Shown in pieces: positions 1 to 12,153 of a stretch of DNA of 12,174 bases; within the stretch, counting starts at the first letter, position 1; each line of letters starts with the position of its first letter. The stretch comes from Candidatus Woesearchaeota archaeon. Its GTDB lineage: Archaea > Nanobdellota > Nanobdellia > Woesearchaeales > UBA12501. The stretch lies in NCBI GenBank assembly GCA_016203375.1, contig JACQMX010000020.1, positions 1 through 12,174 on the forward strand, written 5' to 3'. The notes under the pieces were generated by a model that did not search any database, was not told where the DNA came from, and was given only the letters and a program-made list of their open reading frames with translations. The position numbers and the translations under genes were made by a program.

Positions 1-1533
1 GATATCAAAACGGCAAAATCCTTCAATTGCAATGTGCGCGTTAAATCTGGCCAACTGCAAACGGCGCTTGGCAATGTTCCCTTGATCACGCACTACTTTA
101 AGGCGTCTGCCGATTACGTTTATAAATTGGAAAAGGCAATTTCTGTTAACGTGAAACATCCGCCGGACAAGCCAGGCATTGAGCCACCAGGAGTATCGTG
201 TACTGCAATTGCCAATATTCCAAGCCAGTATGAATATCTGCGATCCAACTATATTCCAACAAACTCGGAAGAGGAGCTGGTGAATACAATCATCCAAAAT
301 TATGGGGTATACATTGATGAGGCAGCCGCTGCAAACCCAAATGTTCCTCCCTCGCTTATTGTCGCGTTTATTGTGCATGAGTCTGGGGGTAATCCACTTG
401 AAGTGTCTACTGCTGGTGCTGTCGGCTTAATGCAACTCATGCCGCACACATCAAAAAGCGAAGGCAATACCCGCGTTATTGATCCTCAAGACCAACTTGA
501 CGATGCCGGCTTCGATAGGCGTCCAGGTGTTGAGTGGAATGATTATGGCAACACGCTTCGAGCCTATGTACAAGGAAAAACTCCCGCGCAGCTTATCGCT
601 GAAGATCCGCGTTTTGATCCGCGCTTGAACATCCTTTGGGCAACGAGCTATATCAGTAAACTAGTTTCTCGATTTAGCAACGACTTTCACAAAACGACGG
701 CAGGCTATAATGCGGGTCCTCATCGCGTCGATGAATGGATAGCTAATGGTCAGTGGGACAACTTCCAGCGTTCTGGCTACCAGTGCGCAAATCCAAGCTG
801 CACCTATCAACCAGTTCAGCGACCAATTCTATCCATCCCAAAGACACAAAGTTATGTCAATCGAGTTGTAGCAACATTCAAGATGGTAGATCGCATCATG
901 AATCCTGGCAGACAAGCAACGGCAACACCCGGCACATACGCATGGTCTGTTGATCCTTCTGTCGGAAATCGGATTAGTGATTGCTTTAGCAAGGTTGATG
1001 TGGTGGATGGCAGGAGACATTACGGCACGGACATCCCTGTTCCTGAAGGTGTATCTGTTGTGGCGATAGCGGATGGCGTTGTACAAGATGTTTGTGGCCG
1101 TTCAACGGTGCGCTGTGACGAACCCGGATTACCGGTGTGCACTGCTGAAAATTCTTGCAATGGACAGGGAAATTTTGTCGAAGTGCGCACGGATCAAGGA
1201 TGGTACTATAAGTATATGCATCTCACCGAGGAGCATGTAGCGCGTGATACACGCGTAACCAAAGGCCAAGTGATTGGAAAATCCGGCAACACTGGGCATT
1301 CCACTGGTCCGCACATTCATGTTGAAACCTATACAAGTGCCTCCAGCAGAAGTGAAACGGCATTCAACACCCTATGCCTGTACGATCAAAATTTCATTGC
1401 CGGACTAACGTTTGACTCGACTGGGAATTGCAATCTGTATAAAGATGGCGGCGCAACCTTCAATCTAAACAGTAATACCTTCAGACAACAATGCCTCGAT
1501 ATGCAACAGCTATTATCCGGTGGTATGTCATGA
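1..1533 (+). CDS. Secreted lytic transglycosylase / M23 endopeptidase fusion, 5' end missing
   Basis: The frame is open to the first base of the window (it reads DIKTAKSFNCN before the GTG at 34), so the gene starts upstream. Residues below count from that GTG. Residues about 85-285 form a GH23 SLT fold: catalytic Glu116 in HESGGNP, GAVGLMQLMP at 128-137, GYNAGP at 224-229 and the closing TQSYVNRV at 271-278. Residues about 310-440 form an LytM-type M23 peptidase: HYGTD at 329-333 (zinc ligands His329 and Asp333), MHL with His396, and GPHIH with His427 and His429. All catalytic residues expected for both families are present. The family roles are cleavage of glycan strands and of peptide cross-links in peptidoglycan. 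Many cysteines (for example 362, 369, 375, 448, 466, 487) fit an extracytoplasmic protein. No signal peptide can be seen because the N-terminus is cut off. The stop overlaps the next start (ATGA), suggesting coupled translation with the lipoprotein gene. Confidence 0.9.
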   Translation, partial: DIKTAKSFNCNVRVKSGQLQTALGNVPLITHYFKASADYVYKLEKAISVNVKHPPDKPGIEPPGVSCTAIANIPSQYEYLRSNYIPTNSEEELVNTIIQNYGVYIDEAAAANPNVPPSLIVAFIVHESGGNPLEVSTAGAVGLMQLMPHTSKSEGNTRVIDPQDQLDDAGFDRRPGVEWNDYGNTLRAYVQGKTPAQLIAEDPRFDPRLNILWATSYISKLVSRFSNDFHKTTAGYNAGPHRVDEWIANGQWDNFQRSGYQCANPSCTYQPVQRPILSIPKTQSYVNRVVATFKMVDRIMNPGRQATATPGTYAWSVDPSVGNRISDCFSKVDVVDGRRHYGTDIPVPEGVSVVAIADGVVQDVCGRSTVRCDEPGLPVCTAENSCNGQGNFVEVRTDQGWYYKYMHLTEEHVARDTRVTKGQVIGKSGNTGHSTGPHIHVETYTSASSRSETAFNTLCLYDQNFIAGLTFDSTGNCNLYKDGGATFNLNSNTFRQQCLDMQQLLSGGMS

Positions 1534-2549
1534 AAGCAAAATATTTTTGTGTCCTTTTCTTGATGGCTTTAGTTCTTCTTGGTGCATGTCAACTGAAACG
1601 AGGCCAAGGAGGCATACAGCAAGTGCCGTTGCACATAGGTCAGGAAGGACTCGCGCTTAATTTTTTACCGAACTTACCGCCACCAAAATTCTATGCTCCT
1701 GAAGAAGGCGAGGAAACAGAATTCGAAATTGGCGTCGATATCATGAATCGGGGCGCGTACGACATCGTCGGTGGTTACCTTACGCTTGGCCTTGAAAGTG
1801 ATTATGTGCGATTCAAACAATGGAATCTTGAAGATAAGCCGCAATTTACGCAAATTGGCGTTGCCGGCGAGCGCGTTGCCTTCAATCTATTGGGGAGATC
1901 ACAACTTGATCCGCAAGGAGAGCGCGCCGTGATCAGCGCGAATGTCCAACCGTTGTCATTAGACCCTCTTACCGAGCAACATAGAACAACCATTATTGTT
2001 ACTGCGTGCTATCCATACGCGACAGAAGCAAGCGCGCAGATTTGCATTGATACTGATGTATATGGCATGAAGCCCATAGAGAAAGTGTGCAAGCCATCAA
2101 CGGTAACACTTTCAGGAGGGCAAGGGGCTCCTGTCGCGGTAACAAAGGTGGAAGAAAGAATATTATCTTCAGGCGGCGAATATATTCGTCCTCAATTCAT
2201 AATTTTTGTCAAGAACATTGGGCGCGGCACGGTTGTGCGTCAAGATAAAGTAGAAGCGGCGTGCTCCGCACAGGCATTAAGCGAGACAGAGCGAAAACAA
2301 TTCTTTAACAGCGTTACGCTTGATGACATTCGGTTTTCAGAATTCAGCTTTACTGGAGGTCATTTTGACTGCATTCCTGGAGAGGTTAAATTAAAAGATG
2401 GGGAGGGATTTATCAAATGCACACTCCATGATGAACTCTTGAGCATCGAGCGTGAAACCTACGCTACCCCTCTTTTTATCCGTCTTCGCTATGGCTATTT
2501 CCAAACCATTGCTACTGATGTATTACTTGAACGCGTATTACCTTATTAA
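1530..2549 (+). CDS. Cysteine-containing lipoprotein, paralog of the next gene
   Basis: The 339-aa protein starts at the ATG at 1530, inside the ATGA overlap with the upstream hydrolase gene. GGTGGT at 1519-1524 is a plausible ribosome binding site. An in-frame ATG at 1491 would add 13 polar residues before the signal peptide and is less likely. The N-terminus is MKAK, a hydrophobic stretch, then the lipobox LGAC with Cys20, so a membrane-anchored, outward-facing lipoprotein is expected. The rest looks all-beta: stretches such as EFEIGVDIMNRGAYDIVGGY and FIIFVKNIGRGTVV resemble CARDB/Ig-like adhesion repeats, though I cannot assign a family. It shares VTACYxYxTEAxxxxCID, KVC and GAPVAVT(K/R)VEE with the following protein, as well as a C-terminal RYGYFQTIA-type ending. 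The function is unknown; the overlap with a wall hydrolase gene suggests joint work at the cell surface. Confidence 0.85.
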   Translation: MKAKYFCVLFLMALVLLGACQLKRGQGGIQQVPLHIGQEGLALNFLPNLPPPKFYAPEEGEETEFEIGVDIMNRGAYDIVGGYLTLGLESDYVRFKQWNLEDKPQFTQIGVAGERVAFNLLGRSQLDPQGERAVISANVQPLSLDPLTEQHRTTIIVTACYPYATEASAQICIDTDVYGMKPIEKVCKPSTVTLSGGQGAPVAVTKVEERILSSGGEYIRPQFIIFVKNIGRGTVVRQDKVEAACSAQALSETERKQFFNSVTLDDIRFSEFSFTGGHFDCIPGEVKLKDGEGFIKCTLHDELLSIERETYATPLFIRLRYGYFQTIATDVLLERVLPY

Positions 2550-2612: not shown

Positions 2613-3557
2613 ATGACAATGCGACAAAAGAAGGGTATCTCTATTCCTGTGGTTTTTGTACTTCTCATTTTTTTGTCAAGTTGCACTGGTCTTTATCGGG
2701 GAAGACAGCAAGCTACGCCATACACCTTTCACACTGGAACGCAAGGGATGGTGCTTGAGTTCTTTCCCGGTTCCCCACCAGATCGCCTTTATGAGGGTGA
2801 TTCGTTGACGCTTCTCGTTAAATACGCAAACAAAGGCGCCTACACCGTGGAAGGCGGCATGCTGTATGTCAGTGGTTATGATCGTGCGTACGTGCCTCTA
2901 GTGCCAGATCAAATGCCATTCAATGCTGAGGGAAAAAGTATCTATAATCCAGAAGGCCTTATCTCTTATACCGCAGAGTTTTCAGCGGGCACAGTAATCG
3001 CTCCACCATACGTTGACGTTTTCCCGCAAACATTTAAGGTGACCGCATGCTATAAGTATCGTACTGAAGCCGCGGTTGATGTATGTATTGATCCTGATCC
3101 ATTGCGTATCCAGCCGCAAGATAAGGTATGCGTTATTCACGATGCAAGTCTAAGCTCGCAAGGGGCCCCAGTCGCGGTAACTCGCGTTGAGGAAGACGCA
3201 GCAAAGGGAAGGGTGCAGTTTAAGATCGCTATCAATAACGTTGGCGGTGGAACCGTTATTGCGAGCAGTGCTGGTTCTGTGCCGTTAGATAGGTGTCAAG
3301 CAGATCTCCGCCAGGACGAAGTTGATAAGGTAGAGATCAGCGCGGAACTTTCTGGCAGATTCCTCGAATGTAATCCAAAGCAAGTACGCTTGATCAATGG
3401 GCAAGGTATTGCGTTTTGTTCTCTGTTCTTGACAGATTATCAAACGCAAGATGCGTATCAAACAACGCTGAATGTTTATCTGGATTACGGCTATAGAAAT
3501 TCCATAGCGAAGCGTGTGGACGTTCTCAAATTGCCAGGCACGCCTAGGTTCTATTAA
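2613..3557 (+). CDS. Cysteine-containing lipoprotein, paralog of the preceding gene
   Basis: The 314-aa protein begins MTMRQKKG, then a hydrophobic stretch and the lipobox LSSC with Cys24. A second ATG at 2619 is also possible; both keep the signal peptide. The mature part aligns by eye along its whole length with the preceding lipoprotein: NKGAYTVEGG against NRGAYDIVGG, VTACYKYRTEA against VTACYPYATEA, then CID, KVC, GAPVAVTRVEE, NVGGGTV, a C-terminal CNPKQVRL cysteine, and DYGYRNSIA against RYGYFQTIA. The cysteine positions are kept, so disulfide bonds in an exported beta-rich domain are likely. The gene has its own TATA box and follows by 63 bases, so the pair can be transcribed separately. 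I recognise no named family. A role as a surface or apparatus-associated lipoprotein is inference from the duplication and the neighbouring hydrolase. Confidence 0.85.
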   Translation: MTMRQKKGISIPVVFVLLIFLSSCTGLYRGRQQATPYTFHTGTQGMVLEFFPGSPPDRLYEGDSLTLLVKYANKGAYTVEGGMLYVSGYDRAYVPLVPDQMPFNAEGKSIYNPEGLISYTAEFSAGTVIAPPYVDVFPQTFKVTACYKYRTEAAVDVCIDPDPLRIQPQDKVCVIHDASLSSQGAPVAVTRVEEDAAKGRVQFKIAINNVGGGTVIASSAGSVPLDRCQADLRQDEVDKVEISAELSGRFLECNPKQVRLINGQGIAFCSLFLTDYQTQDAYQTTLNVYLDYGYRNSIAKRVDVLKLPGTPRFY

Positions 3558-3633: not shown

Positions 3634-3700
3634 AGCGCTCCGCGCTTTCTTCTGTTACCTTAGTCCCACCCACCCTTTATGGTGCAGACACTCATTTGAC

Positions 3701-3751
3701 ACGATGTTGATCTTGCGCCCCCAACCTTGAGGGGCACAAGATCAACATCGT
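3701..3751. repeat. Imperfect 21-bp inverted repeat with 9-base loop
   Basis: The arm 3701-3721 (ACGATGTTGATCTTG, one mismatched base, then GCCCC) is complementary to 3731-3751 at 20 of 21 positions. The single mismatch is C3716 against A3736. The loop is 3722-3730. There is no T-run directly after it, so a plain intrinsic terminator is not the obvious reading. Confidence 0.85.
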
Positions 3752-3776
3752 TGTGCATGAAGAAGAGCATTTAAGC

Positions 3777-3997
3777 GCCGAGTGAGATTCGGAACAGCGT
3801 TTCCAACGGCTCTGTCCTGAATCTCGCTTTGCTCGGCCGGTGCCATCGAACGCCAACCAGGCACGCCGCTTCGCCGAGGTTCCGTTCCTCCCCCTTCTAT
3901 GGGGAGGAACGGAACCTCGGCTCAGGTTAAAGCACAAATCCTGCGGAGCGCGCAGGCGCGAAAAAGATGGCACTGGCCACATTCCGGACAGAGCCGT
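3777..3997. repeat. Nested and mutually exclusive inverted repeats
   Basis: Two competing foldings share the segment around 3806-3837. Locally, GCCGAG 3777-3782 pairs with CTCGGC 3832-3837, and GAGATTC 3784-3790 pairs with GAATCTC 3819-3825. At long range, 3806-3822 pairs with 3981-3997 at 16 of 17 positions (including ACGGCTCTGTCC), and 3835-3847 pairs with 3966-3978 at 12 of 13. The perfect hairpin at 3873-3921 sits inside the long-range fold. This could be a structured RNA, or a decayed inverted-repeat element. Confidence 0.6.
3873..3921. repeat. Perfect 21-bp inverted repeat with 7-base loop
   Basis: 3873-3893 (GCCGAGGTTCCGTTCCTCCCC without its last base) is exactly complementary to 3901-3921, with loop 3894-3900. 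The stem is GC-rich and uninterrupted, so it would be very stable as RNA. It does not end in a T-run. Confidence 0.9.
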
Positions 3998-4010
3998 CTC
4001 CAACAAAAGC

Positions 4011-4018
4011 TTTAAATA
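4011..4018 (+). promoter_or_regulatory. TATA box for the first five-helix membrane protein gene
   Basis: TTTAAATA lies 36-43 bases before the ATG at 4054. A start near 4038-4042 would leave a leader of about 12-16 bases that just includes the ribosome binding site GAGGT at 4044-4048. The preceding hairpin island therefore lies upstream of this transcript, not in its leader. Confidence 0.6.
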
Positions 4019-4053
4019 CGTCATCTGCGATAGACTTCTAAAAGAGGTTTCCC

Positions 4054-4644
4054 ATGGCTGAATCGATGTTCAGAGGCATTATCAGCTTCTTTGCAGAACT
4101 TGGCGTCTATGATATCGTGTTGCCATTCCTTCTCGTCTTTACTATCGTTTTCGCCATTCTTGAAAAAACAAAGATTTTAGGTACAGATAATATTGGAGGA
4201 AAAGAGTACACAAAGAAAAACCTCAATTCAATGGTTGCCTTTGTAACGGCATTCTTAGTCATCGCGTCAACAAGACTAGTAGCCATCATCAATGAAACCC
4301 TCGCTCATGTCGCCTTGCTCCTTATCCTCTCTATTTGCTTCCTCATGCTCATTGGCTCGTTTTACAAAGAAGGAGAGCCTGTCGCGCTTTTTGGCAAGTG
4401 GCGTGCCATGTTTATGATTATTATGTTTGTCGGCATTATTCTTATTGCGCTTAATGCGGTTACCTTAGAAAGCGGGGAAAGTGTCCTCGAGTTCACATAC
4501 AATTATTTGAGCAGCAACTGGTCGAGTAACTTCACGGCTTCAGTCATCTTCTTGGTTATCATCATCATTTTTATTTTGTACATAACCTACACTCCAGAAA
4601 AAGGTGGTGGTGGAAGCGCCAGTCATGGCGAGCATGGTCATTAA
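4054..4644 (+). CDS. Five-helix membrane protein, paralog A
   Basis: The 196-aa protein starts at the ATG at 4054, five bases after GAGGT (4044-4048). Predicted membrane helices lie at about residues 17-37, 60-80, 84-104, 117-137 and 160-180. The tail is Gly/His-rich (GGGGSASHGEHGH). The first helix region, YDIVLPFLLVFTIVFAILEK followed by TKILG, closely matches the second protein (DVLLPFFLIFTIVFAILQRT, then KLLG), and the third follows the same plan. The segment between helices 1 and 2 carries GTDNIGGKEYTKKN. I recognise no named family. The three genes and their placement between the wall hydrolase and a type IV filament motor suggest a structural part of an envelope complex, but this is inference. 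Because no enzyme motif is visible, a catalytic role is not supported. Confidence 0.9.
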   Translation: MAESMFRGIISFFAELGVYDIVLPFLLVFTIVFAILEKTKILGTDNIGGKEYTKKNLNSMVAFVTAFLVIASTRLVAIINETLAHVALLLILSICFLMLIGSFYKEGEPVALFGKWRAMFMIIMFVGIILIALNAVTLESGESVLEFTYNYLSSNWSSNFTASVIFLVIIIIFILYITYTPEKGGGGSASHGEHGH

Positions 4645-4701
4645 CTCATTAACCTCTATTTTAGCATCTATCTCTGGGTCAATCAATAGGTCAATCAAAA
4701 C

Positions 4702-4730
4702 CGTTTTATTCTCGTTTTATCCCCCTTTTT
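4702..4730 (+). terminator. T-rich terminator after membrane protein A
   Basis: Two copies of CGTTTTAT (4702-4709 and 4713-4720) are followed by CCCCCTTTTT (4721-4730). Just upstream GGTCAATCA is also repeated (4677-4685, 4689-4697). Successive T-runs are a typical archaeal termination signal. Confidence 0.5.
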
Positions 4731-4736
4731 AAAAAC

Positions 4737-4760
4737 GAAAGTTTTATATACCAAACTTTC
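4737..4760 (+). promoter_or_regulatory. TATA box inside a perfect 8-bp dyad, promoter of membrane protein B
   Basis: TTTTATATA (4742-4750) is overlapped by GAAAGTTT (4737-4744), which is exactly mirrored by AAACTTTC (4753-4760) with an 8-base spacer. Transcription should start near 4770-4775, by the palindrome AACCGGTT (4775-4782). The dyad looks like an operator whose occupant would block TBP binding. Confidence 0.6.
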
Positions 4761-4803
4761 CTCGTATTCCTCATAACCGGTTACGGACGCATGGCGTCCA
4801 AAA

Positions 4804-4810
4804 GAGGAGG
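4804..4810 (+). promoter_or_regulatory. Ribosome binding site deciding the start of membrane protein B
   Basis: GAGGAGG is the strongest Shine-Dalgarno match in this part of the window, and its seven-base spacing points to the ATG at 4818 over the one at 4791. Confidence 0.75.
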
Positions 4811-4817
4811 ATCTATA

Positions 4818-5411
4818 ATGGTTAACTATGGCTATTTTCAGAATGCCGTGGCCCAGCTTGACGCGCTTGGCATAACGGATGTCCTCCTACCATTCTTCCT
4901 CATCTTTACAATTGTTTTTGCGATTCTCCAACGCACAAAACTGCTTGGGGAAAATAGAAAAAACTTCAACGTCATGATCGCGCTTATTTTAGCATTCGCT
5001 GTTGTTATCCCACACGTTACTGGTGGTTATCCTCCAGGAATGGACGTCGTTGATATCATCAATCGCGCCTTGCCCAATGTGTCCTTGGTTCTCGTTGCTA
5101 TCTTGATGGTTCTCATCCTCATTGGTTTATTCGGCTGGTCTGTTGGTGGAGAAGGAACGAGCATTCAGGGATGGATAGCCTTTCTCGCATTTTTGGCAGT
5201 GGTGTACATTTTTGGTGCAGCGGCTGATTTATGGCATATTCCAAATAGGCTTAACTTCTTGCTCAACCCAGACACGCAAGCGCTCATCGTTGTCTTGCTT
5301 ATCTTCGGCATTGTAGTATGGTTCATTACCAAAGAGGAGAAGGAATCTGCCGGAGAAGGCGCCTTGAAGAGCCTGGGCAAGACGCTCGGAGAGCTCTTTA
5401 AGAAGCACTAA
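4818..5411 (+). CDS. Five-helix membrane protein, paralog B
   Basis: I choose the ATG at 4818 because a strong ribosome binding site, GAGGAGG (4804-4810), lies seven bases before it. An in-frame ATG at 4791 would add nine residues but has no such site. The 197-aa protein has helices at about residues 20-37, 50-66, 86-106, 118-136 and 152-171 and a charged, lysine-rich cytosolic-looking tail ending LGELFKKH. Its first helix and following loop match paralog A almost residue for residue (PFFLIFTIVFAILQRTKLLG). The loop after helix 2 has PHVTGGYPPGMD. The promoter is its own, with a dyad over the TATA box. The stop is two bases before the start of paralog C, so B and C are probably translated from one transcript. 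The function is unknown; a subunit of a membrane complex is inferred. Confidence 0.9.
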   Translation: MVNYGYFQNAVAQLDALGITDVLLPFFLIFTIVFAILQRTKLLGENRKNFNVMIALILAFAVVIPHVTGGYPPGMDVVDIINRALPNVSLVLVAILMVLILIGLFGWSVGGEGTSIQGWIAFLAFLAVVYIFGAAADLWHIPNRLNFLLNPDTQALIVVLLIFGIVVWFITKEEKESAGEGALKSLGKTLGELFKKH

Positions 5412-5413
5412 CA

Positions 5414-6034
5414 ATGGCAACAATCCTCGACGTAGGTGTTCTTGCAAACTTTAGCATTGTTTTCGCTATGGTCCTTATCATAGCCATTGTTTATGGAATA
5501 CTTCAATTTACCAAGGCATTCCATGGGACAAAAGGCCTGCATATCCTCATCGCTTTTATCGTTGGCTTGCTCTTTATCTTAACTCCTGACGTGACAAGGG
5601 CGGTATCCATCATGATCCCTTGGTTTACGCTTCTCTTCATCTTCATTGTTTTCCTTTTAATGGCGTACAAGATTTTTGGAGCTACAGATGCAGATATCGT
5701 TGGAGTATTACGGACTGATCGCACGATCGCATGGGTCATCGTTATCATTGCTATCGTCATTGCCATTGGCTCGTTTAGCAGCGTTTATGGCCAGCGTTTC
5801 CTTGCTGAAACAGTTCCTGGTGCTCCTGTTGAACCTTCCGGAGCCCCGACAGGCGCTGTTGCAGGTGTGACCCCCTCTGCTGCTACACCAAGTTTCTCGG
5901 GTAACCTTGCTGCGACATTTTTCCATCCAAAGATCTTAGGCATGCTTTTCTTATTCTTGGTTGCTGTTTTTACCATTGCTGTTCTCGCCATGGAAGCCCG
6001 TAGTGTAGGTGGAGGCGGCCTTGGCGGGCATTAA
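5414..6034 (+). CDS. Five-helix membrane protein, paralog C
   Basis: The 206-aa protein starts two bases after the stop of paralog B and has no clear ribosome binding site, which fits translational coupling. Helices lie at about residues 8-31, 42-56, 67-87, 104-122 and 172-192. The first helix ends IVYGILQFTKAFHG, the same layout as IVFAILxxTKxxG in A and B, but overall it is the most divergent of the three. Between helices 4 and 5 is a Pro/Ala/Gly/Ser/Thr-rich stretch (about residues 133-165), probably an exposed flexible linker that A and B lack. The tail is Gly-rich and ends in His (GGGGLGGH), like that of A. The family is not recognised and the function is inferred only from context. Confidence 0.88.
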   Translation: MATILDVGVLANFSIVFAMVLIIAIVYGILQFTKAFHGTKGLHILIAFIVGLLFILTPDVTRAVSIMIPWFTLLFIFIVFLLMAYKIFGATDADIVGVLRTDRTIAWVIVIIAIVIAIGSFSSVYGQRFLAETVPGAPVEPSGAPTGAVAGVTPSAATPSFSGNLAATFFHPKILGMLFLFLVAVFTIAVLAMEARSVGGGGLGGH

Positions 6035-6062
6035 GAAGAGTGTGAAAATTCTTTAAAATTTC

Positions 6063-6080
6063 TTTTCTAAAGGTTTTTTT
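6063..6080 (+). terminator. T-run terminator after membrane protein C
   Basis: TTTTCTAAAG is repeated (6063-6072 and 6077-6086) with a run of seven T at 6074-6080. It lies in the 65-base gap between two convergent genes. On the opposite strand a run of five T (6095-6099) directly follows the stop of the minus-strand gene and may end that transcript. Confidence 0.55.
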
Positions 6081-6099
6081 CTAAAGAAGTGAGGAAAAA

Positions 6100-6786
6100 C
6101 TACATTGGCTTCTTGTTCATTGGTGATGGCGTCTTCTTTATCTGCTGCGTAATCCTGCTTAGCTCATTCACATTCTCAATGAAGCCTGGCAAGATTTTTT
6201 GGAAGACTTTCTCCAATGCCTTAATTTCAGTCCCAATATCCTGCAAGCCATGATCGTATTCAGAAATCTTGCCAAGCACGCCTTCATGCAAACGATCAAA
6301 GCTGCTCTTCATGTCCTGTATCGCCTGCTCTATTCTTGCTACACGAGATTCTGTGGTGTCTTTCCAATCGAGGATCTTGTTCACATTGTTGATAAGATCC
6401 GTCCACTTTTCGTCAATAATCGCTTCAGCTATTTCCTGAATGCGCTCATCCGTCATTTTTCCTTCATTCATGCCGCCCATGGCTCCAGTTGAGCCCATCC
6501 CTTGCGTTGTGTGAAATGCCGGCGGCGCGCCAGCTCCCATGGAAAATGGTGTGGAGACGATGCCCTCCTTGATGTCCGCTTGGTTAATTGCGTTATTAAT
6601 TTGATCAACGCTGTATCCTGCACGCTGCAGGTTTTGAATGATCTGATTATTTGATAATCCTTGGCTTCGCATGGCAATAACTTGTTCAACAGGGATATCA
6701 TTCGGCATTGGTTTCGTCTCCATAGGTGGCTGAAATGGTTTCTGTGTTGCGGGTTTCTTTCCAAAGATGTCTTCCAGAAATGCCAT
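6100..6786 (-). CDS. Coiled-coil protein with UBA-like N-terminal helices
   Basis: This 228-aa soluble protein begins MAFLEDIFGKK. Residues 32-70 (VEQVIAMRSQGLSNNQIIQN and on to GYSVDQINNAINQA) form a short helical repeat of the UBA type, where a hydrophobic GLS/GYS turn precedes each amphipathic helix. A Gly/Met/Pro-rich linker follows (about 78-110). Residues about 112-217 have heptad-like spacing and should form a long coiled coil. There is no signal peptide or membrane helix, so it is cytosolic. It has its own TATA box and a weak GAGG (6791-6794). Archaeal filament clusters often carry coiled-coil FlaC/D/E proteins that sit around the ATPase; a similar role is possible here but no FlaC or FlaE signature is certain. 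It converges on the membrane-protein operon. Confidence 0.85.
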   Translation of the reverse strand: MAFLEDIFGKKPATQKPFQPPMETKPMPNDIPVEQVIAMRSQGLSNNQIIQNLQRAGYSVDQINNAINQADIKEGIVSTPFSMGAGAPPAFHTTQGMGSTGAMGGMNEGKMTDERIQEIAEAIIDEKWTDLINNVNKILDWKDTTESRVARIEQAIQDMKSSFDRLHEGVLGKISEYDHGLQDIGTEIKALEKVFQKILPGFIENVNELSRITQQIKKTPSPMNKKPM

Positions 6787-6820
6787 GCGTCCTCATTTTA
6801 TAGTACCTGTTTCCATGGTT

Positions 6821-6828
6821 TTTAAATA
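6821..6828 (-). promoter_or_regulatory. TATA box for the UBA/coiled-coil gene
   Basis: Read on the minus strand the box is TATTTAAA, centred about 39 bases before the ATG. This predicts a start near 6799 and a leader of about 12 bases that includes GAGG. It lies just past the stop of the upstream minus-strand gene. Confidence 0.5.
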
Positions 6829-6835
6829 TTACGTT

Positions 6836-7321
6836 TTATCCTTCTCGGAGAAGCGGTCGTTGCCCCAGCTTTTCCTCAATTCTATCGTCAACAATCTTCT
6901 CCACCATCGCCTTGGTGACAAAATTAACGGGTTCCCAAAGGTTGATATAATTTTCCAGCACCTTTACCTCGTCTGTCTTTGCGCATTCCTTTAATTCTTT
7001 TACAATAAGTTTTGTCTTATCACGAAGATCATAAAATTCTCGTCGAAAATCAACAAGTTCTGAATGGGTTGCCTTCAGTTCGCTCGTTAGTTGCTTATTC
7101 ACGTTCAAAATCGTTTGATCGGTATCTTGCGTCTTTTTCCGTAAAGAGGTATAGCGTTCTTCAAGAATGCGAAGGCGCCTGCTCAGGTTATTGAGCTGCA
7201 TCGAAAGGTCGCTGACGCTTACGCCAGCTGCTTCATCATGCTTTCCTCCGAAAAGACCTGCGTGCTTTTTTTCTTCTGGTTGTGTGGGAGGAGCGCCGAA
7301 AGGGAGACCTTCATTTGCCAT
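6836..7321 (-). CDS. Coiled-coil protein, possible FlaC-like filament accessory protein
   Basis: The 161-aa cytosolic protein starts with a Pro/Lys-rich, probably disordered segment containing LFGGK (compare IFGKK in its neighbour). A continuous coiled coil follows from about residue 35 to 112 (SDLSMQLNNLSRRLRILEER and on). The C-terminal block 118-148 (EVKVLENYINLWEPVNFVTK, then a helix) looks like a small folded cap. Length, coiled coil and location beside a FlaI-type ATPase gene resemble archaeal FlaC-type accessory proteins, but this is a resemblance and not a family match that I can prove. The transcript appears leaderless. It is divergent from the ATPase gene, so the two promoters share one 184-base region and could be co-regulated. 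Confidence 0.85.
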   Translation of the reverse strand: MANEGLPFGAPPTQPEEKKHAGLFGGKHDEAAGVSVSDLSMQLNNLSRRLRILEERYTSLRKKTQDTDQTILNVNKQLTSELKATHSELVDFRREFYDLRDKTKLIVKELKECAKTDEVKVLENYINLWEPVNFVTKAMVEKIVDDRIEEKLGQRPLLREG

Positions 7322-7337
7322 AAAGTTAAACCCGCAA

Positions 7338-7347
7338 TATTTATATA
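7338..7347 (-). promoter_or_regulatory. TATA box for the FlaC-like coiled-coil gene
   Basis: On the minus strand the sequence is TATATAAATA, centred about 21 bases before the ATG at 7321. Normal archaeal spacing puts the transcription start at or next to the ATG, so the mRNA should be leaderless; no ribosome binding site is visible. Confidence 0.65.
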
Positions 7348-7407
7348 CCCTCTTCTCCTTTGTTGCCCATAAATTCCGTCGGAAGGGGTTTAATGCGGCA
7401 ACAAGGC

Positions 7408-7417
7408 TTTTTTATAT
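7408..7417 (+). promoter_or_regulatory. TATA box for the ATPase gene
   Basis: TTTTTTATAT is the best box A in the divergent region and predicts a start near 7440, leaving a leader of about 65 bases. That leader holds short repeats: GTGAGTA (7446-7452, 7456-7462) and CAGATAG (7473-7479, 7481-7487). An inverted repeat, TTGTTGCC (7360-7367) with GGCAACAA (7397-7404), sits almost midway between the two divergent TATA boxes. Confidence 0.5.
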
Positions 7418-7505
7418 CTCACGTCTCTTCGAATAATAAAGTTATGTGAGTATACGTGAGTAATAAAAAACACAGATAGGCAGATAGACAAAAAGAGGGT
7501 GTTTG

Positions 7506-9788
7506 ATGCCAGAGGATGTTTGGAAATACGAAGTCATCCGTGAGGGTGAGGATGTCATCCTCCGCATCGATTGCGAACGTCTTGCCCGTGTTCCTTCTCT
7601 TGAAGATGATCCCCTCTATATGGCGAAGACGATTGATATTCTTCTAGAAGTCGGTCAGGTAACAAAAATTGTTTTTTTTCAAAAGCGTGATTTTGAATAC
7701 GATATAGATCAAACGCAGCTTATCCTTGAAATCGCCAATCTCTATGGCATGCTCTTGCGCCAAAAAGATTCCTTTGGTTTCGAAGCCATGACATTTGGTG
7801 GAAGGTGCAGAAAAGGCGCGGAGCAGCGGTACCTTACCATTCAAACAGTTATATTTCGGCATTTGAAAGAAGACACCATTGGTACATATGTCGAGCTGAA
7901 ACGTCTTCTCCGCGATGAGCACATCAAGCAACAAAAACTGCTTGATCCGGTAGACATTGAGTGTTCGCAAAAATACCAAAGCGTACTCAGCTATTTGCTC
8001 AAGCTCCTTGATAAGACCAAACTTATCGCGCTCGCCCGTCCGTATCTTGAAGGCCATCGTGTCGGCACACGGGATATCTATCGCGAAATCCTGCAGCCAC
8101 TTATCAAGCCTGATTTTATGTTCACGCGCTTGATGGCCGCGTATCCTCTTGGTGGTGAAGAGATTGATAATTACACTATTGGTGGGGATACAGAAGTAAC
8201 CCTCTTCAAATTTCCAGACAGTACAAAATACCTTTACCATATCTTGCCTCCCGAATTCAAACTTTCTGAGGAAAAATATGATATTCTTGATATGGCTCGA
8301 AAGATCATGGCGGAGCATAAGCCAACGCGAGCGGAGTTTGTTAATCCTCAACGCATGCGTGATGTATTCTATCACGTTGGTCATGACCTTATCGAAGAAT
8401 TGCTTGCCTATCGAGGCATGCACTTAACGGATGCAGAAATTGATCAATTGACAAAAATCCTTGTGCGATACACGGTGGGCTTTGGGCTGATTGAAGTATT
8501 GCTGCAGGACGATAAAATTCAAGACATCTCTATCAACAGTCCAATGGGAAGAGTGCCAATGTTCATCGTGCATGGAGACTATGCTGATTGTGACAGCAAT
8601 ATCGTTCCCACAACACCAGAAGCGGAATCATGGGCCTCGAAGCTGCGTATGATCTCCGGCAGACCATTAGATGAAGCCAACCCAATCCTTGATACCGAGC
8701 TTCGTCTTGGCTATGCGACAGCGCGCGTTTCCGTAATCACGCAGCCGTTAGATCCTACCGGGCTTGCGTATTCTTTCAGGCGTCATAGAAACAAGCCATG
8801 GACCTTGCCCTTGTTTATCAAGCAACGAATGATAACCCCCATGGCCGCGGGTTTGCTCAGCTTCTTAGTTGATGGTACGCGAACGATGCTTATCGCTGGA
8901 ACAAGAAGCTCTGGAAAATCATCTTTCCTCACATCGCTGATGGTGGAGATCATGCGGCGTTATCGAGTTATCACGATTGAGGACACGCTTGAGCTGCCAA
9001 CGGATTCTCTTCGCGAACTTGGTTATAACATCCAAAGCATGAAGGTAGCAAGTGCCTTGGTGAAAGGCTCAAGCGAAGTGAGCGCCAGCGATGGCATTCG
9101 AAGCACGCTGCGTCTCGGGGATTCTTCCCTTATTATCGGCGAAGTTCGTTCCGCCGAGGCAATCGCGCTTTACGAAGCCATGCGTGTTGGCGCGGCAGCG
9201 AATGTGGTGGCAGGTACCATCCACGGCGATTCACCGTATGGTGTTTTTGATCGTGTCGTGAACGACATTGGCGTTCCACGAACTTCATTCAAGGCAACGG
9301 ACATCATCATTGTCGCTAATCCTATTAGAAGCTCTGATGGCATCCATCGAAACAGGCGAGTCACGCAAATAACGGAAGTGCGAAAACATTGGGAAGAAGA
9401 CCCCTTGCTTGAGGGTGGCTTTGTCGACCTCATGAAGTATGAGCCCAAGAAGGACGAGCTTGAGTTAACGCATGACCTCATTAATGGCGATAGTGATGTG
9501 CTGAAGGCTATCGCCGGCAATGTCGCTGATTTTGCTGGCAATTGGGAGGCGCTTTGGAACAACATCGATCTCCGCGCGAAGATCAAGAAAGCGCAAGTAG
9601 ATTATGTGATGAAGCTTGGCGATCTTGAACTGCTTGAAGCGCCATTTACTATAAGCTGCAATGATCAGTTCCACATCCTGACAGATAAGATAAAAGAGGA
9701 AGTTGGCGCTATAGATACAAAGCGCATTTATGACGAATGGGAGATGTGGCTGAAGAAGGAACTCAAAAAACACAAGATGAAAGAATAG
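7506..9788 (+). CDS. FlaI/GspE-family type IV filament or secretion ATPase, enlarged
   Basis: I choose the ATG at 7506, five bases after GAGGGT (7495-7500); a TTG directly before it is in frame but unnecessary. This gives 760 aa, well above the roughly 500-600 aa usual for FlaI. The C-terminal motor domain is complete: Walker A GTRSSGKS at 465-472 (Lys471), Asp box ITIEDTLEL at 489-497, Walker B region LIIGEVRS at 542-549, and His box GTIHGDSPYG with His573. The N2-type segment with LTDAEIDQLTKILVRYTVGF and RPLDEANPILDTEL lies just before it. The first ~270 residues match no domain I recognise, and about 130 residues follow the motor core. The role in the family is ATP-driven assembly of a pilus/archaellum-like filament or secretion from the cytosolic face, together with a FlaJ/TadC platform, here the next gene. 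Confidence 0.93.
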   Translation: MPEDVWKYEVIREGEDVILRIDCERLARVPSLEDDPLYMAKTIDILLEVGQVTKIVFFQKRDFEYDIDQTQLILEIANLYGMLLRQKDSFGFEAMTFGGRCRKGAEQRYLTIQTVIFRHLKEDTIGTYVELKRLLRDEHIKQQKLLDPVDIECSQKYQSVLSYLLKLLDKTKLIALARPYLEGHRVGTRDIYREILQPLIKPDFMFTRLMAAYPLGGEEIDNYTIGGDTEVTLFKFPDSTKYLYHILPPEFKLSEEKYDILDMARKIMAEHKPTRAEFVNPQRMRDVFYHVGHDLIEELLAYRGMHLTDAEIDQLTKILVRYTVGFGLIEVLLQDDKIQDISINSPMGRVPMFIVHGDYADCDSNIVPTTPEAESWASKLRMISGRPLDEANPILDTELRLGYATARVSVITQPLDPTGLAYSFRRHRNKPWTLPLFIKQRMITPMAAGLLSFLVDGTRTMLIAGTRSSGKSSFLTSLMVEIMRRYRVITIEDTLELPTDSLRELGYNIQSMKVASALVKGSSEVSASDGIRSTLRLGDSSLIIGEVRSAEAIALYEAMRVGAAANVVAGTIHGDSPYGVFDRVVNDIGVPRTSFKATDIIIVANPIRSSDGIHRNRRVTQITEVRKHWEEDPLLEGGFVDLMKYEPKKDELELTHDLINGDSDVLKAIAGNVADFAGNWEALWNNIDLRAKIKKAQVDYVMKLGDLELLEAPFTISCNDQFHILTDKIKEEVGAIDTKRIYDEWEMWLKKELKKHKMKE

Positions 9789-9816
9789 ATTGTTGCGTAT
9801 TTACCATATAGCATGT

Positions 9817-9825
9817 ATTTTATAC
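9817..9825 (+). promoter_or_regulatory. Possible TATA box for the platform protein gene
   Basis: TATTTTATA lies in the 91-base gap after the ATPase gene and would place a start near 9847, inside the ribosome binding site. ATAAATA at 9834-9840 is an alternative. Read-through from the ATPase gene is equally possible, so this is weak. Confidence 0.3.
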
Positions 9826-9844
9826 CATCTTCATAAATAAAAAA

Positions 9845-9874
9845 GAGGTGACCATAGGCAAGCACGTCTATGGT
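9845..9874 (+). promoter_or_regulatory. Ribosome binding site separated from the start codon by a hairpin
   Basis: GAGGTGA (9845-9851) is a strong Shine-Dalgarno match but lies 28 bases before the ATG at 9880. The bases between form a 9-bp stem: 9851-9859 (ACCATAGGC) pairs with 9866-9874 (GTCTATGGT, one G-U pair), with loop AAGCAC. Folding the stem would leave only the five bases 9875-9879 between it and the start codon. An in-frame TAA at 9874-9876 excludes any earlier start. Confidence 0.55.
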
Positions 9875-9879
9875 AAGGT

Positions 9880-12153
9880 ATGGCGTCCGAGAAGAATAAA
9901 CAACCACAAAGTCCGCAAGAACAGCGACGGGATGAGATAGATGAACTTATGCGGAAGTATAATGAGCGGCTAAAGCAGACGCTTGTTACGGGTGAGGAAG
10001 CTCCAGCAACGACAGAAACGCAGCCTATTCGAACCATTGAATATTCAGAATTTAAGAAGCAATACATGCCGCGCCACATGACCTGGTATGAAGCCGTGTG
10101 CCAATTTTCTGAGAAGATTATCAAGATAGCACCTGACCAGAAAAAGCTCCCTGATTACCAAGAAGCAATCAATATTTGCCATCTCAATGTGACCCCCGCA
10201 GGAGTCATGTCATTCGCCATTCTTGGGCCAGTGGTCCTTGCCCTTCTTGGCGCTTTGATAAGCTTGCTTTTTGGTTCTGTCTTTTTTGTTTTGTTTTTTG
10301 TCATTGTGGGCGTTGCACTGCTCAGTCCATTACAGAATTATCCATTCTTCTTAGCCAACACCTGGCGCATGAAAGCGAGCAATCAGATGGTTCTCTGTAT
10401 TTTTTATGTGGTTACATATATGCGCCATACATCAAATATTGAACTGGCCATAGAGTTTGCCTCTGATCATCTTTCTCCACCACTCTCTCTTGATATGAAA
10501 AAGGTCCTTTGGGACGTTGAAACAGAGAAATACGAATCAGTCAAGGAAAGCCTCGACATGTACCTTGATACATGGAGAAAGTGGAACATGGAATTCATCG
10601 AGGCCTTCCATCTTGTTGAAGGATCCTTGTATGAAGGAAGCGAAGATAGGCGTCTTTCCATGCTCGAAAAGGCGCTTTCTACCATTCTTGATGAAACGTA
10701 CGAAAAAATGCTGCATTACGCCCAAAACCTGAAATCCCCCATTACCATGCTTCACATGCTCGGCGTTATATTGCCCATCCTTGGCTTAGTTATTCTTCCG
10801 TTGGTCGTCAGCTTTATGTGCCAAGTCCAATGGTACCATCTCGCTGCATTGTATAACATTATTCTTCCTATTTCCGTGTATTATCTCGGTAAAACCATTC
10901 TCGCGAGCAGGCCAACGGGTTATGGGGATACTGATATTGCTGAAACCAATCCGCAGCTGCGAAAGTTTCGTAATTTCATTCTTAAGATCGGCAAAACAGA
11001 AATCGCGATAAAGCCGGTTTATATCAGTGTTATCATCGGTGTTTTATTCTTGCTCATTGGCATAAGTCCGTTGTTGCTGAACGGTCTTGTCGGGAAAACA
11101 AATTGGGACATCATTCTGGATAATGACAACAATATCAAGCGCGTTTTTGAGCTAGAAAATCGTGATGAGAAATTTTCATTGCTTGGCTACAAGAATTCGA
11201 AAGGATGCCCCCCGGGCGAAGAGGGTGCAGGCGAGCGCATTGGGCCATTTGGTTTGGGTGCAGGACTTCTGAGCTTGAGCCTCGTGCTCTCCCTTGGCTT
11301 GAGCATTGGCATCTATCACAAGATCCGCTCGCAGAATGTCATCAAGATCCGTGAAGAATCAAAAAAACTCGAAGACGAGTTTGCCTCCGCGTTGTTCCAG
11401 TTGGGCAATCGCTTAGGCGACGGATTGCCGGCGGAAATAGCCTTTGGCAAAGTCGCTGAGGTCATGGAAGGCACGATCTCCGGCGAATTTTTCAGGTTGG
11501 TGTCATCAAACATCACGCGCATGGGCATGAGCGTCAACGAAGCAATTTTCCATCCCGATCACGGTGCTTTGGTGTATTATCCTTCCGCCATCATTGAAAG
11601 CTCAATGAAGGTGCTTACGGAATCAGCGAAGAAAGGACCCAAAATTGCCGCGGAAGCAGTCATCAATGTCTCGCGCTATATCAAGGAAATTCATCGCGTT
11701 AACGAACGCCTCAAAGATCTCATGGCTGATGTTATATCCTCAATGAAATCACAGATAAGCTTCCTCACTCCAGTTATCGCTGGCATTGTTATTGGCATCA
11801 CGTCGATGATCACTACCATTCTTGGCAAACTTGGCGTGCAGATACGGAACATCACCGCGCAGAGTGGCGGTGCCGCGGCCGGCGGAGCGACTGGTCTGGT
11901 TGGCTTATTTGGTGATGGCGTACCAACATATTATTTCCAAATCATGGTTGGCCTGTATGTTGTTCAGATTGTGTACATCCTCACCATTCTCACGAATGGC
12001 ATCGAGAATGGTGCGGATAAGCTGAATGAGCGCTATAGCCTTGGCGTGAATATGATCAAGAGCACGATACTCTATGTTCTCGTATCTTTTGGCGTTATAT
12101 TGTTATTCAACATTATCGCTGGAAGTATTATTGGGAGGATATCGCTGGGATGA
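9880..12153 (+). CDS. FlaJ/TadC-family membrane platform protein, two T2SSF modules
   Basis: The start must be the ATG at 9880 because an in-frame stop lies four bases before it. The 757-aa protein has a charged cytosolic N-terminus (about 1-105) and roughly nine membrane helices near residues 107-130, 133-150, 286-312, 318-341, 378-402, 457-479, 624-648, 683-706 and 727-752. Two cytosolic helical modules of the T2SSF type lie at about 160-285 and 490-623; the second contains DEFASALFQLGNRLGDGLPA, typical of TadC/FlaJ proteins. The family forms the inner-membrane platform on which the ATPase works. It is longer than ordinary FlaJ. The segment 403-456 between helices 5 and 6 is polar, has a cysteine and is probably an external loop; a Gly/Ala-rich stretch (662-679) precedes helix 8. 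It follows the ATPase gene, the standard order for these motors. Confidence 0.92.
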   Translation: MASEKNKQPQSPQEQRRDEIDELMRKYNERLKQTLVTGEEAPATTETQPIRTIEYSEFKKQYMPRHMTWYEAVCQFSEKIIKIAPDQKKLPDYQEAINICHLNVTPAGVMSFAILGPVVLALLGALISLLFGSVFFVLFFVIVGVALLSPLQNYPFFLANTWRMKASNQMVLCIFYVVTYMRHTSNIELAIEFASDHLSPPLSLDMKKVLWDVETEKYESVKESLDMYLDTWRKWNMEFIEAFHLVEGSLYEGSEDRRLSMLEKALSTILDETYEKMLHYAQNLKSPITMLHMLGVILPILGLVILPLVVSFMCQVQWYHLAALYNIILPISVYYLGKTILASRPTGYGDTDIAETNPQLRKFRNFILKIGKTEIAIKPVYISVIIGVLFLLIGISPLLLNGLVGKTNWDIILDNDNNIKRVFELENRDEKFSLLGYKNSKGCPPGEEGAGERIGPFGLGAGLLSLSLVLSLGLSIGIYHKIRSQNVIKIREESKKLEDEFASALFQLGNRLGDGLPAEIAFGKVAEVMEGTISGEFFRLVSSNITRMGMSVNEAIFHPDHGALVYYPSAIIESSMKVLTESAKKGPKIAAEAVINVSRYIKEIHRVNERLKDLMADVISSMKSQISFLTPVIAGIVIGITSMITTILGKLGVQIRNITAQSGGAAAGGATGLVGLFGDGVPTYYFQIMVGLYVVQIVYILTILTNGIENGADKLNERYSLGVNMIKSTILYVLVSFGVILLFNIIAGSIIGRISLG

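What the first reader, a model, noticed from the sequence alone, without database searches (positions are those of the whole stretch)
1..1533. Peptidoglycan-type double hydrolase in an archaeal genome
Both domains keep all their catalytic residues: SLT Glu116, GLMQLMP and GYNAGP, and M23 His329, Asp333, His396, His427 and His429. Archaea have no murein, so an intact glycan-plus-peptide hydrolase suggests a target outside the cell: a bacterial partner or competitor, or a pseudomurein wall. That the target is a partner cell is inference.
Basis: partly seen in the sequence, partly recalled or inferred. Interest (0 to 1): 0.7.

Follow-up and report, generated by a model that had tools for sequence, protein, structure and literature searches.

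The report
Archaeal membrane arm with wall-cutting tip
A small archaeon that shows no sign of building a bacterial-type wall carries, on an outward-facing membrane protein, two enzymes that cut bacterial cell walls, and its relatives carry the same protein with other wall-cutting enzymes at the tip, which suggests a device for acting on neighbouring bacteria.

Summary
In detail: nt 1-1533 encode SLT transglycosylase plus M23 endopeptidase with the named catalytic residues present. The gene is cut at its 5' end; another contig of the same genome overlaps it by exactly 119 bp and gives a 1,074-aa protein: about five membrane helices, an outward cysteine-bearing domain, then SLT and M23. Named relatives are mostly Candidatus Woesearchaeota (DPANN).

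The front part ('carrier') sits in a conserved operon (prepilin-like protein, carrier, lipoproteins); I recovered 96 carriers from relatives. And the carrier's C-terminal tip varies: 23 of 54 carriers scanned pass a Pfam cut-off, always in a murein-hydrolase family (SLT 14, glucosaminidase 3, NlpC/P60 2, M23 2, amidase 1, M15 1). Of 91 carriers with a complete 3' end, 34 have almost no tip. A single clade of SLT tips is rejected (p-AU 0.012).

Best reading: a membrane platform that displays exchangeable murein hydrolases against other, bacterial, cells. Display is well supported; target and purpose are inferred. SLT proteins in Woesearchaeota are already published; six literature searches showed no report of this operon or of tip exchange.

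The parts
1..1533 (+). 3' part (510 aa, incl. stop codon 1531-1533) of the 1,074-aa carrier protein; 5' part lies on contig G000:C7 (L003:3-1811, minus strand)
   Evidence: exact 119-bp contig overlap and continuous frame
1..144 (+). end of the conserved extracellular carrier core domain
   Evidence: carrier-core alignment A2 matches G000:C109:4-144
322..762 (+). SLT (GH23-like) transglycosylase domain, tip part 1; Glu127 codon at 379-381; insertion between 489 and 595
1015..1338 (+). M23 endopeptidase domain, tip part 2; His340, Asp344, His407, His438, His440
1530..2549 (+). LP1, lipoprotein (MKAKYF...LLGAC lipobox); start codon overlaps the carrier stop (ATGA)
   Evidence: family with lipobox in 79 of 83 relatives
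2613..3557 (+). LP2, lipoprotein paralogous to LP1 (lipobox LSSC)
   Evidence: family with lipobox in 132 of 147
3690..4040 (.). dispersed hairpin-rich repeat between the two modules (not part of the mechanism)
4054..6034 (+). three small membrane proteins MP1 4054-4644, MP2 4791-5411, MP3 5414-6034; neighbouring module, link to the carrier not shown
6100..7321 (-). CC1 6100-6786 and CC2 6836-7321, helical proteins of the same neighbouring module
7503..9788 (+). T2SSE/TadA/FlaI-type ATPase of the neighbouring module
   Evidence: Pfam T2SSE 52.9 bits over cut-off; best NCBIfam models TadA and FlaI, below their cut-offs
9880..12153 (+). large membrane protein, FlaJ/TadC-like by position and recall only
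   Evidence: no Pfam or NCBIfam family over cut-off

Best explanation
The gene is the C-terminal part of a 1,074-aa membrane protein of a woesearchaeal (DPANN) archaeon. About five N-terminal helices anchor it; a conserved outward domain with invariant cysteines carries a tip made of a glycan-cleaving SLT domain and a peptide-cleaving M23 domain. With a prepilin-like protein upstream and two lipoproteins downstream it forms a surface complex. The tip opens the peptidoglycan of a neighbouring bacterium on contact, so that the archaeon can attach, penetrate, feed or kill. Other lineages put other murein hydrolases on the same carrier. Shown by sequence: architecture, operon, exchange of tip families, intact active-site residues. 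Inferred: outward topology, complex formation, that the substrate is bacterial murein, and the purpose.
For: Joined architecture, repeated in single frames of P0020 and P0031 (66-67% to the carrier part, 65 and 63% to the tip). Operon: prepilin-like gene upstream in 71 of 84, lipoprotein downstream in 84 of 86, two or more lipoproteins in 72 of 80, divergent pelota-like gene in 61 of 75 stretches long enough to show it, out of 96 carriers. Tip exchange: 23 of 54 carriers scanned pass a curated Pfam cut-off in six families, all murein hydrolases. P0027, a close relative (49% over the SLT part), has an M15-like end with an EWWH motif in place of M23 (Pfam M15 E=0.0015, below cut-off). One clade of carrier SLTs is rejected, p-AU 0.012. 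SLT Glu kept in 17 of 18 carrier SLTs; HxxxD and HxH kept in 5 of 7 M23 or M23-like tips. Topology: five helices with K/R-richer loops on the N-terminal side in the window protein; an odd helix count in 66 of 89 carriers with complete N-termini. Lipobox 79 of 83 and 132 of 147 against 15 of 433 other genes. No Mur ligase or transpeptidase hit in the own genome.
Against: No activity, expression, localisation or structure data. 34 of 91 carriers with a complete 3' end have under 20 aa after the core, and in other orders of the class the frames are mostly short, so the platform's basic job is not wall cutting. About half of the tips of 80 aa or more show no hydrolase family, some look like Ig, fibronectin, PKD or Cys-rich modules. 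One SLT tip has lost the Glu (L075), two M23-like tips have no metal ligands (L161, L163, judged by eye and motif), and the NlpC tip of L081 lacks the DCSG motif. SLT and M23 domains in the order mostly lie on other proteins. No wall-binding domain was found. PrgK of plasmid pCF10 shows that an M23/LytM domain beside an SLT can be inactive (PMC11323569, abstract).
Confidence: 0.6

Rival explanations
1. Scavenging: the tip trims dead or shed peptidoglycan near the cell surface for amino acids and sugars; no attack on living cells.
For: Woesearchaeota have small genomes and lack many pathways (literature passages); a paper on Pacearchaeota proposes dead bacterial peptidoglycan as an amino-acid source (PMC11537232, passages). 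Free secreted-looking SLT and M23 genes are common in the order (83 and 71 of 145 genomes).
Against: Membrane tethering limits reach and fits contact better than release of a soluble enzyme (inference). No transporter linkage was seen in the operon.
Confidence: 0.2
2. The substrate is a surface polymer of an archaeal host or of the cell itself (pseudomurein, S-layer glycan), and the murein-type folds have changed specificity.
For: [quoted passage not shown]
Against: Six unrelated murein-hydrolase families at one position are hard to explain by a non-murein substrate; no pseudomurein endoisopeptidase family was listed on 54 scanned carriers; active-site residues are kept.
Confidence: 0.1
3. The tips act mainly as binding modules (adhesins) for bacterial walls, with catalysis weak or lost.
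For: Many tips are non-enzymatic modules; a few hydrolase tips have lost catalytic residues; an SLT-type protein of DPANN was proposed to mediate attachment (PMC8204110).
Against: The window tip and most SLT tips keep their catalytic residues (17 of 18 Glu).
Confidence: 0.09
4. Assembly chimera or bacterial contamination.
For: The assembly is fragmented (118 contigs, 71% complete) and the gene spans a contig break.
Against: Same operon in 96 relatives' carriers, same fused architecture in P0020 and P0031, pelota-like gene on the joining contig.
Confidence: 0.01

Closest known systems
Murein-like lytic transglycosylase proteins of Woesearchaeota/Pacearchaeota (fam00969; Castelle et al. 2021, PMC8204110; GH23 in Lake A MAGs, Vigneron et al. 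2022, PMC9723730)
   Same: Large SLT-bearing proteins in the same lineages, proposed to act on bacterial walls
   Different: The passages I read describe only the transglycosylase; no carrier operon, membrane anchor, M23 partner or exchange of tip families. Whether fam00969 contains this carrier could not be checked (supplements not available)
Modular archaeal peptidoglycan hydrolases that kill bacteria (Strock et al. 2025, PMC12352652)
   Same: Archaeal murein hydrolases used outside the cell; M23 domain related to zoocin A, also the best PDB match here (5kvp); domain shuffling
   Different: Their survey required a catalytic plus a wall-binding domain; no wall-binding Pfam family was found here, and this protein is membrane-anchored in a conserved operon
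PrgK and VirB1-type wall hydrolases of Gram-positive conjugation machines (PMC11323569, abstract)
   Same: Membrane-tied extracellular protein with M23/LytM and SLT domains that opens walls for a machine
   Different: Those hydrolases serve a bacterial T4SS; here the neighbours are lipoproteins, a prepilin-like protein and, in this genome only, a TadA/FlaI-type module; no T4SS family passed its cut-off
Phage tail-tip lysins (recalled; a tape-measure protein, 9b45, is among the weak PDB matches)
   Same: Exchangeable murein-hydrolase domains on a conserved delivery structure
   Different: No phage structural genes were recognised in the window

Membership tests
SLT / GH23 lytic transglycosylase | Pfam SLT over cut-off, catalytic Glu, GLMQ and YNAG motifs | tested here: met
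SLT / GH23 lytic transglycosylase | cleaves murein glycan | not testable with these tools
   needs an assay
M23 endopeptidase | Pfam M23 over cut-off, HxxxD and HxH zinc ligands | tested here: met
Modular archaeal peptidoglycan hydrolase (Strock et al. definition) | catalytic plus cell-wall-binding domain | tested here: not met
   only SLT and M23 in the window part, no family in the C7 part
fam00969 (Castelle et al.) | same sequence cluster | not testable with these tools
   supplementary look-ups not available; text read
VirB1/PrgK-type conjugation hydrolase | extracellular SLT plus peptidase on one membrane-tied protein | tested here: met
   (topology by simple hydropathy)
VirB1/PrgK-type conjugation hydrolase | encoded within a type IV secretion system | tested here: not met
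   no T4SS family over cut-off among window genes tested; VirB8 for MP3 and VirB11/TrbB for the ATPase are below cut-off
Archaeal prepilin-like protein (upstream gene) | class III signal: K/R, then G/A, then Q before a hydrophobic stretch (motif recalled) | tested here: met
   54 of 71 family members against 46 of 433 other genes; window copy has RKAQ
Archaeal prepilin-like protein (upstream gene) | membership in a known pilin family | tested here: not met
   no Pfam or NCBIfam family over cut-off

The most novel reading that the evidence does not exclude
Woesearchaeales inherited a class-wide surface complex (prepilin-like protein, multi-helix carrier, lipoproteins) and turned it into a contact-dependent wall-breaching device whose murein-hydrolase tips are exchanged to match changing bacterial hosts or prey: an archaeal counterpart of phage tail-tip lysins.
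Probability: 0.35. Interest if true: 0.85.

Novelty: new variant of a known kind. Interest (0 to 1): 0.6.

Why it matters
The hosts of most uncultured DPANN lineages are unknown, and the abstract of PMC11291902 says all cultivated ones live on archaea. A conserved archaeal platform whose catalytic tips are all murein hydrolases would point to bacteria as partners or prey and gives a single protein to express and test. It also offers a source of new murein hydrolases. The general idea that Woesearchaeota may attack bacteria is already in print (PMC8204110, PMC9723730).

Tried and rejected
Functional link with the TadA/FlaI-type ATPase module next door: considered and set aside. The ATPase occurs in 143 of 145 genomes of the order, but an ATPase or FlaJ match lies in the fetched stretch of only 1 of 96 carriers (L079, a 526-aa match), and 10 of 10 fetched ATPase loci of relatives show no carrier-operon gene. 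The adjacency is special to this genome among those looked at.

'SLT belongs to the carrier': rejected. SLT is found in 83 and M23 in 71 of 145 genomes of the order, mostly on other proteins (the match list is capped). At least seven other frames carry both SLT and M23 by contig and frame length (G010:C9, G115:C11, G095:C22, G093:C3, G085:C14, G078:C131, G120:C10), so the double hydrolase as such is not unique.

Rfam scan of the window: nothing at gathering threshold. Single origin of carrier SLTs: rejected (p-AU 0.012); single origin of carrier plus free woesearchaeal SLTs: not rejected (p-AU 0.264). In that tree the 20 'bac' rows are non-carrier database proteins taken as bacterial; three carry a bacterial name. 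The 20 free woesearchaeal rows were chosen from the top of the list. No M23 tree was made. Planned order-wide searches for PF01832, PF00877 and PF01510 were not run.

Pfam was run on 54 of 96 carriers (30 whole, 20 tips of 80 aa or more, 4 possibly misparsed); the other 42 have short tips and were not scanned. L064 (truncated) has a glucosaminidase match below the cut-off and is not counted in the 23. Tip boundaries come from an HMM and are misparsed in at least L059.

Full report
What is there. Against solved structures the M23 part is closest to zoocin A (5kvp, E=1.8e-8) and the SLT part to Slt70 (1qsa, E=6.9e-9 for that part alone) and MltE; the catalytic motifs are aligned.

The gene is longer than the window. 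Searching the own genome finds the first 39 residues again at the end of contig C7; the two contigs share exactly 119 bp and the joined frame is 1,074 aa. Simple hydropathy gives five helices at 94-238, with the K/R-richer loops on the N-terminal side, so the rest would face outward. Two database proteins, P0020 and P0031 (1,013 and 1,008 aa, the latter on a 321-kb contig), have the whole architecture in one frame, 66-67% identical in the carrier part and 65 and 63% in the tip. The join is therefore sound.

Whose genome. The window's genome (663 kb, 118 contigs, 71% complete) has no name. A scan of named genomes with the carrier core gave 27 loci: 20 titled Candidatus Woesearchaeota, 4 Nanoarchaeota, 1 DPANN group archaeon, 1 uncultured archaeon and 1 Methanosarcinales; the last has the contig length of G139:C113, which lies in the window's order, so its title is probably wrong. 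Contig C7 also carries a protein with eRF1 domains 1-2-3, as in archaeal pelota.

The carrier is conserved, its tip is not. The 603-aa C7 part matches 93 of 145 genomes of the order; the core alignment A2 matches 119 of 194 genomes of the phylum, 30 of them in other orders of the class, there with frames of 291-748 aa. I fetched 100 stretches and found 96 carriers. The neighbours are steady: prepilin-like gene upstream in 71 of 84, lipoprotein gene downstream in 84 of 86, at least two lipoproteins in 72 of 80, divergent pelota-like gene in 61 of 75 (denominators are the stretches that reach far enough). The upstream protein has [KR][GA]Q before its hydrophobic stretch in 54 of 71 against 46 of 433 other genes; the lipobox is present in 79 of 83 LP1 and 132 of 147 LP2 against 15 of 433.

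Tips. Of 91 carriers with a complete 3' end, 46 have 80 aa or more after the core and 34 under 20 aa. Pfam on 54 of 96 carriers gives 23 over a curated cut-off: SLT 14, glucosaminidase 3, NlpC/P60 2, M23 2, Amidase_2 1, M15 1. No other family passed its cut-off; sub-threshold matches include fn3 and PKD. Among the close kin of the window protein, P0027 shares the SLT (49%) but ends in an M15-like stretch with an EWWH motif instead of M23 (Pfam M15 below cut-off). The catalytic Glu is kept in 17 of 18 carrier SLTs and 20 of 20 free SLTs; the M23 ligand motifs in window, P0020, P0031, L087 and L171 but not in the M23-like L161 and L163. The SLT tree (58 rows, 137 columns) puts carrier SLTs in several places: a clade of 7, the window clade of 4, and four mixed with three free woesearchaeal SLTs (98/97); one clade is rejected with p-AU 0.012, though long branches are present.

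Own wall. The own genome has no Mur ligase hit (58 of 145 order genomes do, G014 with three, two of them strong) and no transpeptidase hit, with the limit of 71% completeness. It has a second SLT protein, with a Beta-lactamase2 domain and a twin-arginine-like N-terminus, and a weak second M23 match.

How it most likely works. Membrane anchoring, outward core with invariant cysteines, lipoproteins and a prepilin-like partner describe a surface complex; a tip with one glycan- and one peptide-cleaving domain can open a murein mesh in both directions; six hydrolase families on one carrier point to murein as the common substrate. That the target is a living bacterium touched by the archaeon is inference. 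The short or absent tips in a third of the carriers show that the platform has another basic role, not identified here.

Against print. Large murein-transglycosylase proteins in Woesearchaeota and Pacearchaeota are known (PMC8204110, abstract and section read; PMC9723730, passages; PMC10936187 and PMC11537232, passages). Archaeal peptidoglycan hydrolases that kill bacteria are known, in a survey that required a wall-binding domain (PMC12352652, passages and one section). PMC11323569 and PMC11291902 were seen as abstract and outline. Six searches listed no paper on this operon or on tip exchange; the library holds only open-licence papers.

Noticed in passing
window 3690-4040: Hairpin-rich intergenic element (two 21-bp near-perfect inverted repeats, fold z-score -11.4) with 19 further matches in the own genome list, among them long copies at 88-89% identity on contigs C106 and C27; no Rfam match.
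   Followed up: partly
L206:66-1640 (G000:C98): Second SLT protein of the genome: Beta-lactamase2 domain plus SLT, twin-arginine-like N-terminus by eye, beside a ParA-like gene by eye.
   Followed up: partly
window 4054-12153: MP1-3 / CC1-CC2 / ATPase / FlaJ-like module; the ATPase is in 143 of 145 genomes of the order, and CC or MP genes stand near it in 8 of 10 fetched relatives. Function unknown, TadA/FlaI-like.
   Followed up: partly
G010:C9 and six other frames: Other woesearchaeal proteins carry both SLT and M23 in one frame, apparently without the carrier.
   Followed up: no
L161, L163 carrier tips: M23-like tips without metal ligands, possibly decayed or binding-only.
   Followed up: no
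G014: Three Mur ligase matches, two of them strong, in one genome of the order: transfer or contamination.
   Followed up: no
L119 (isolate bin.69): Carrier locus from an isolate whose name recalls Bin 69 of the Lake A study (PMC9723730); identity not checked.
   Followed up: no
L094 (JAFCBX010000008.1): Record titled Methanosarcinales archaeon has the length of G139:C113 and carries the woesearchaeal operon: probably a wrong title.
   Followed up: partly
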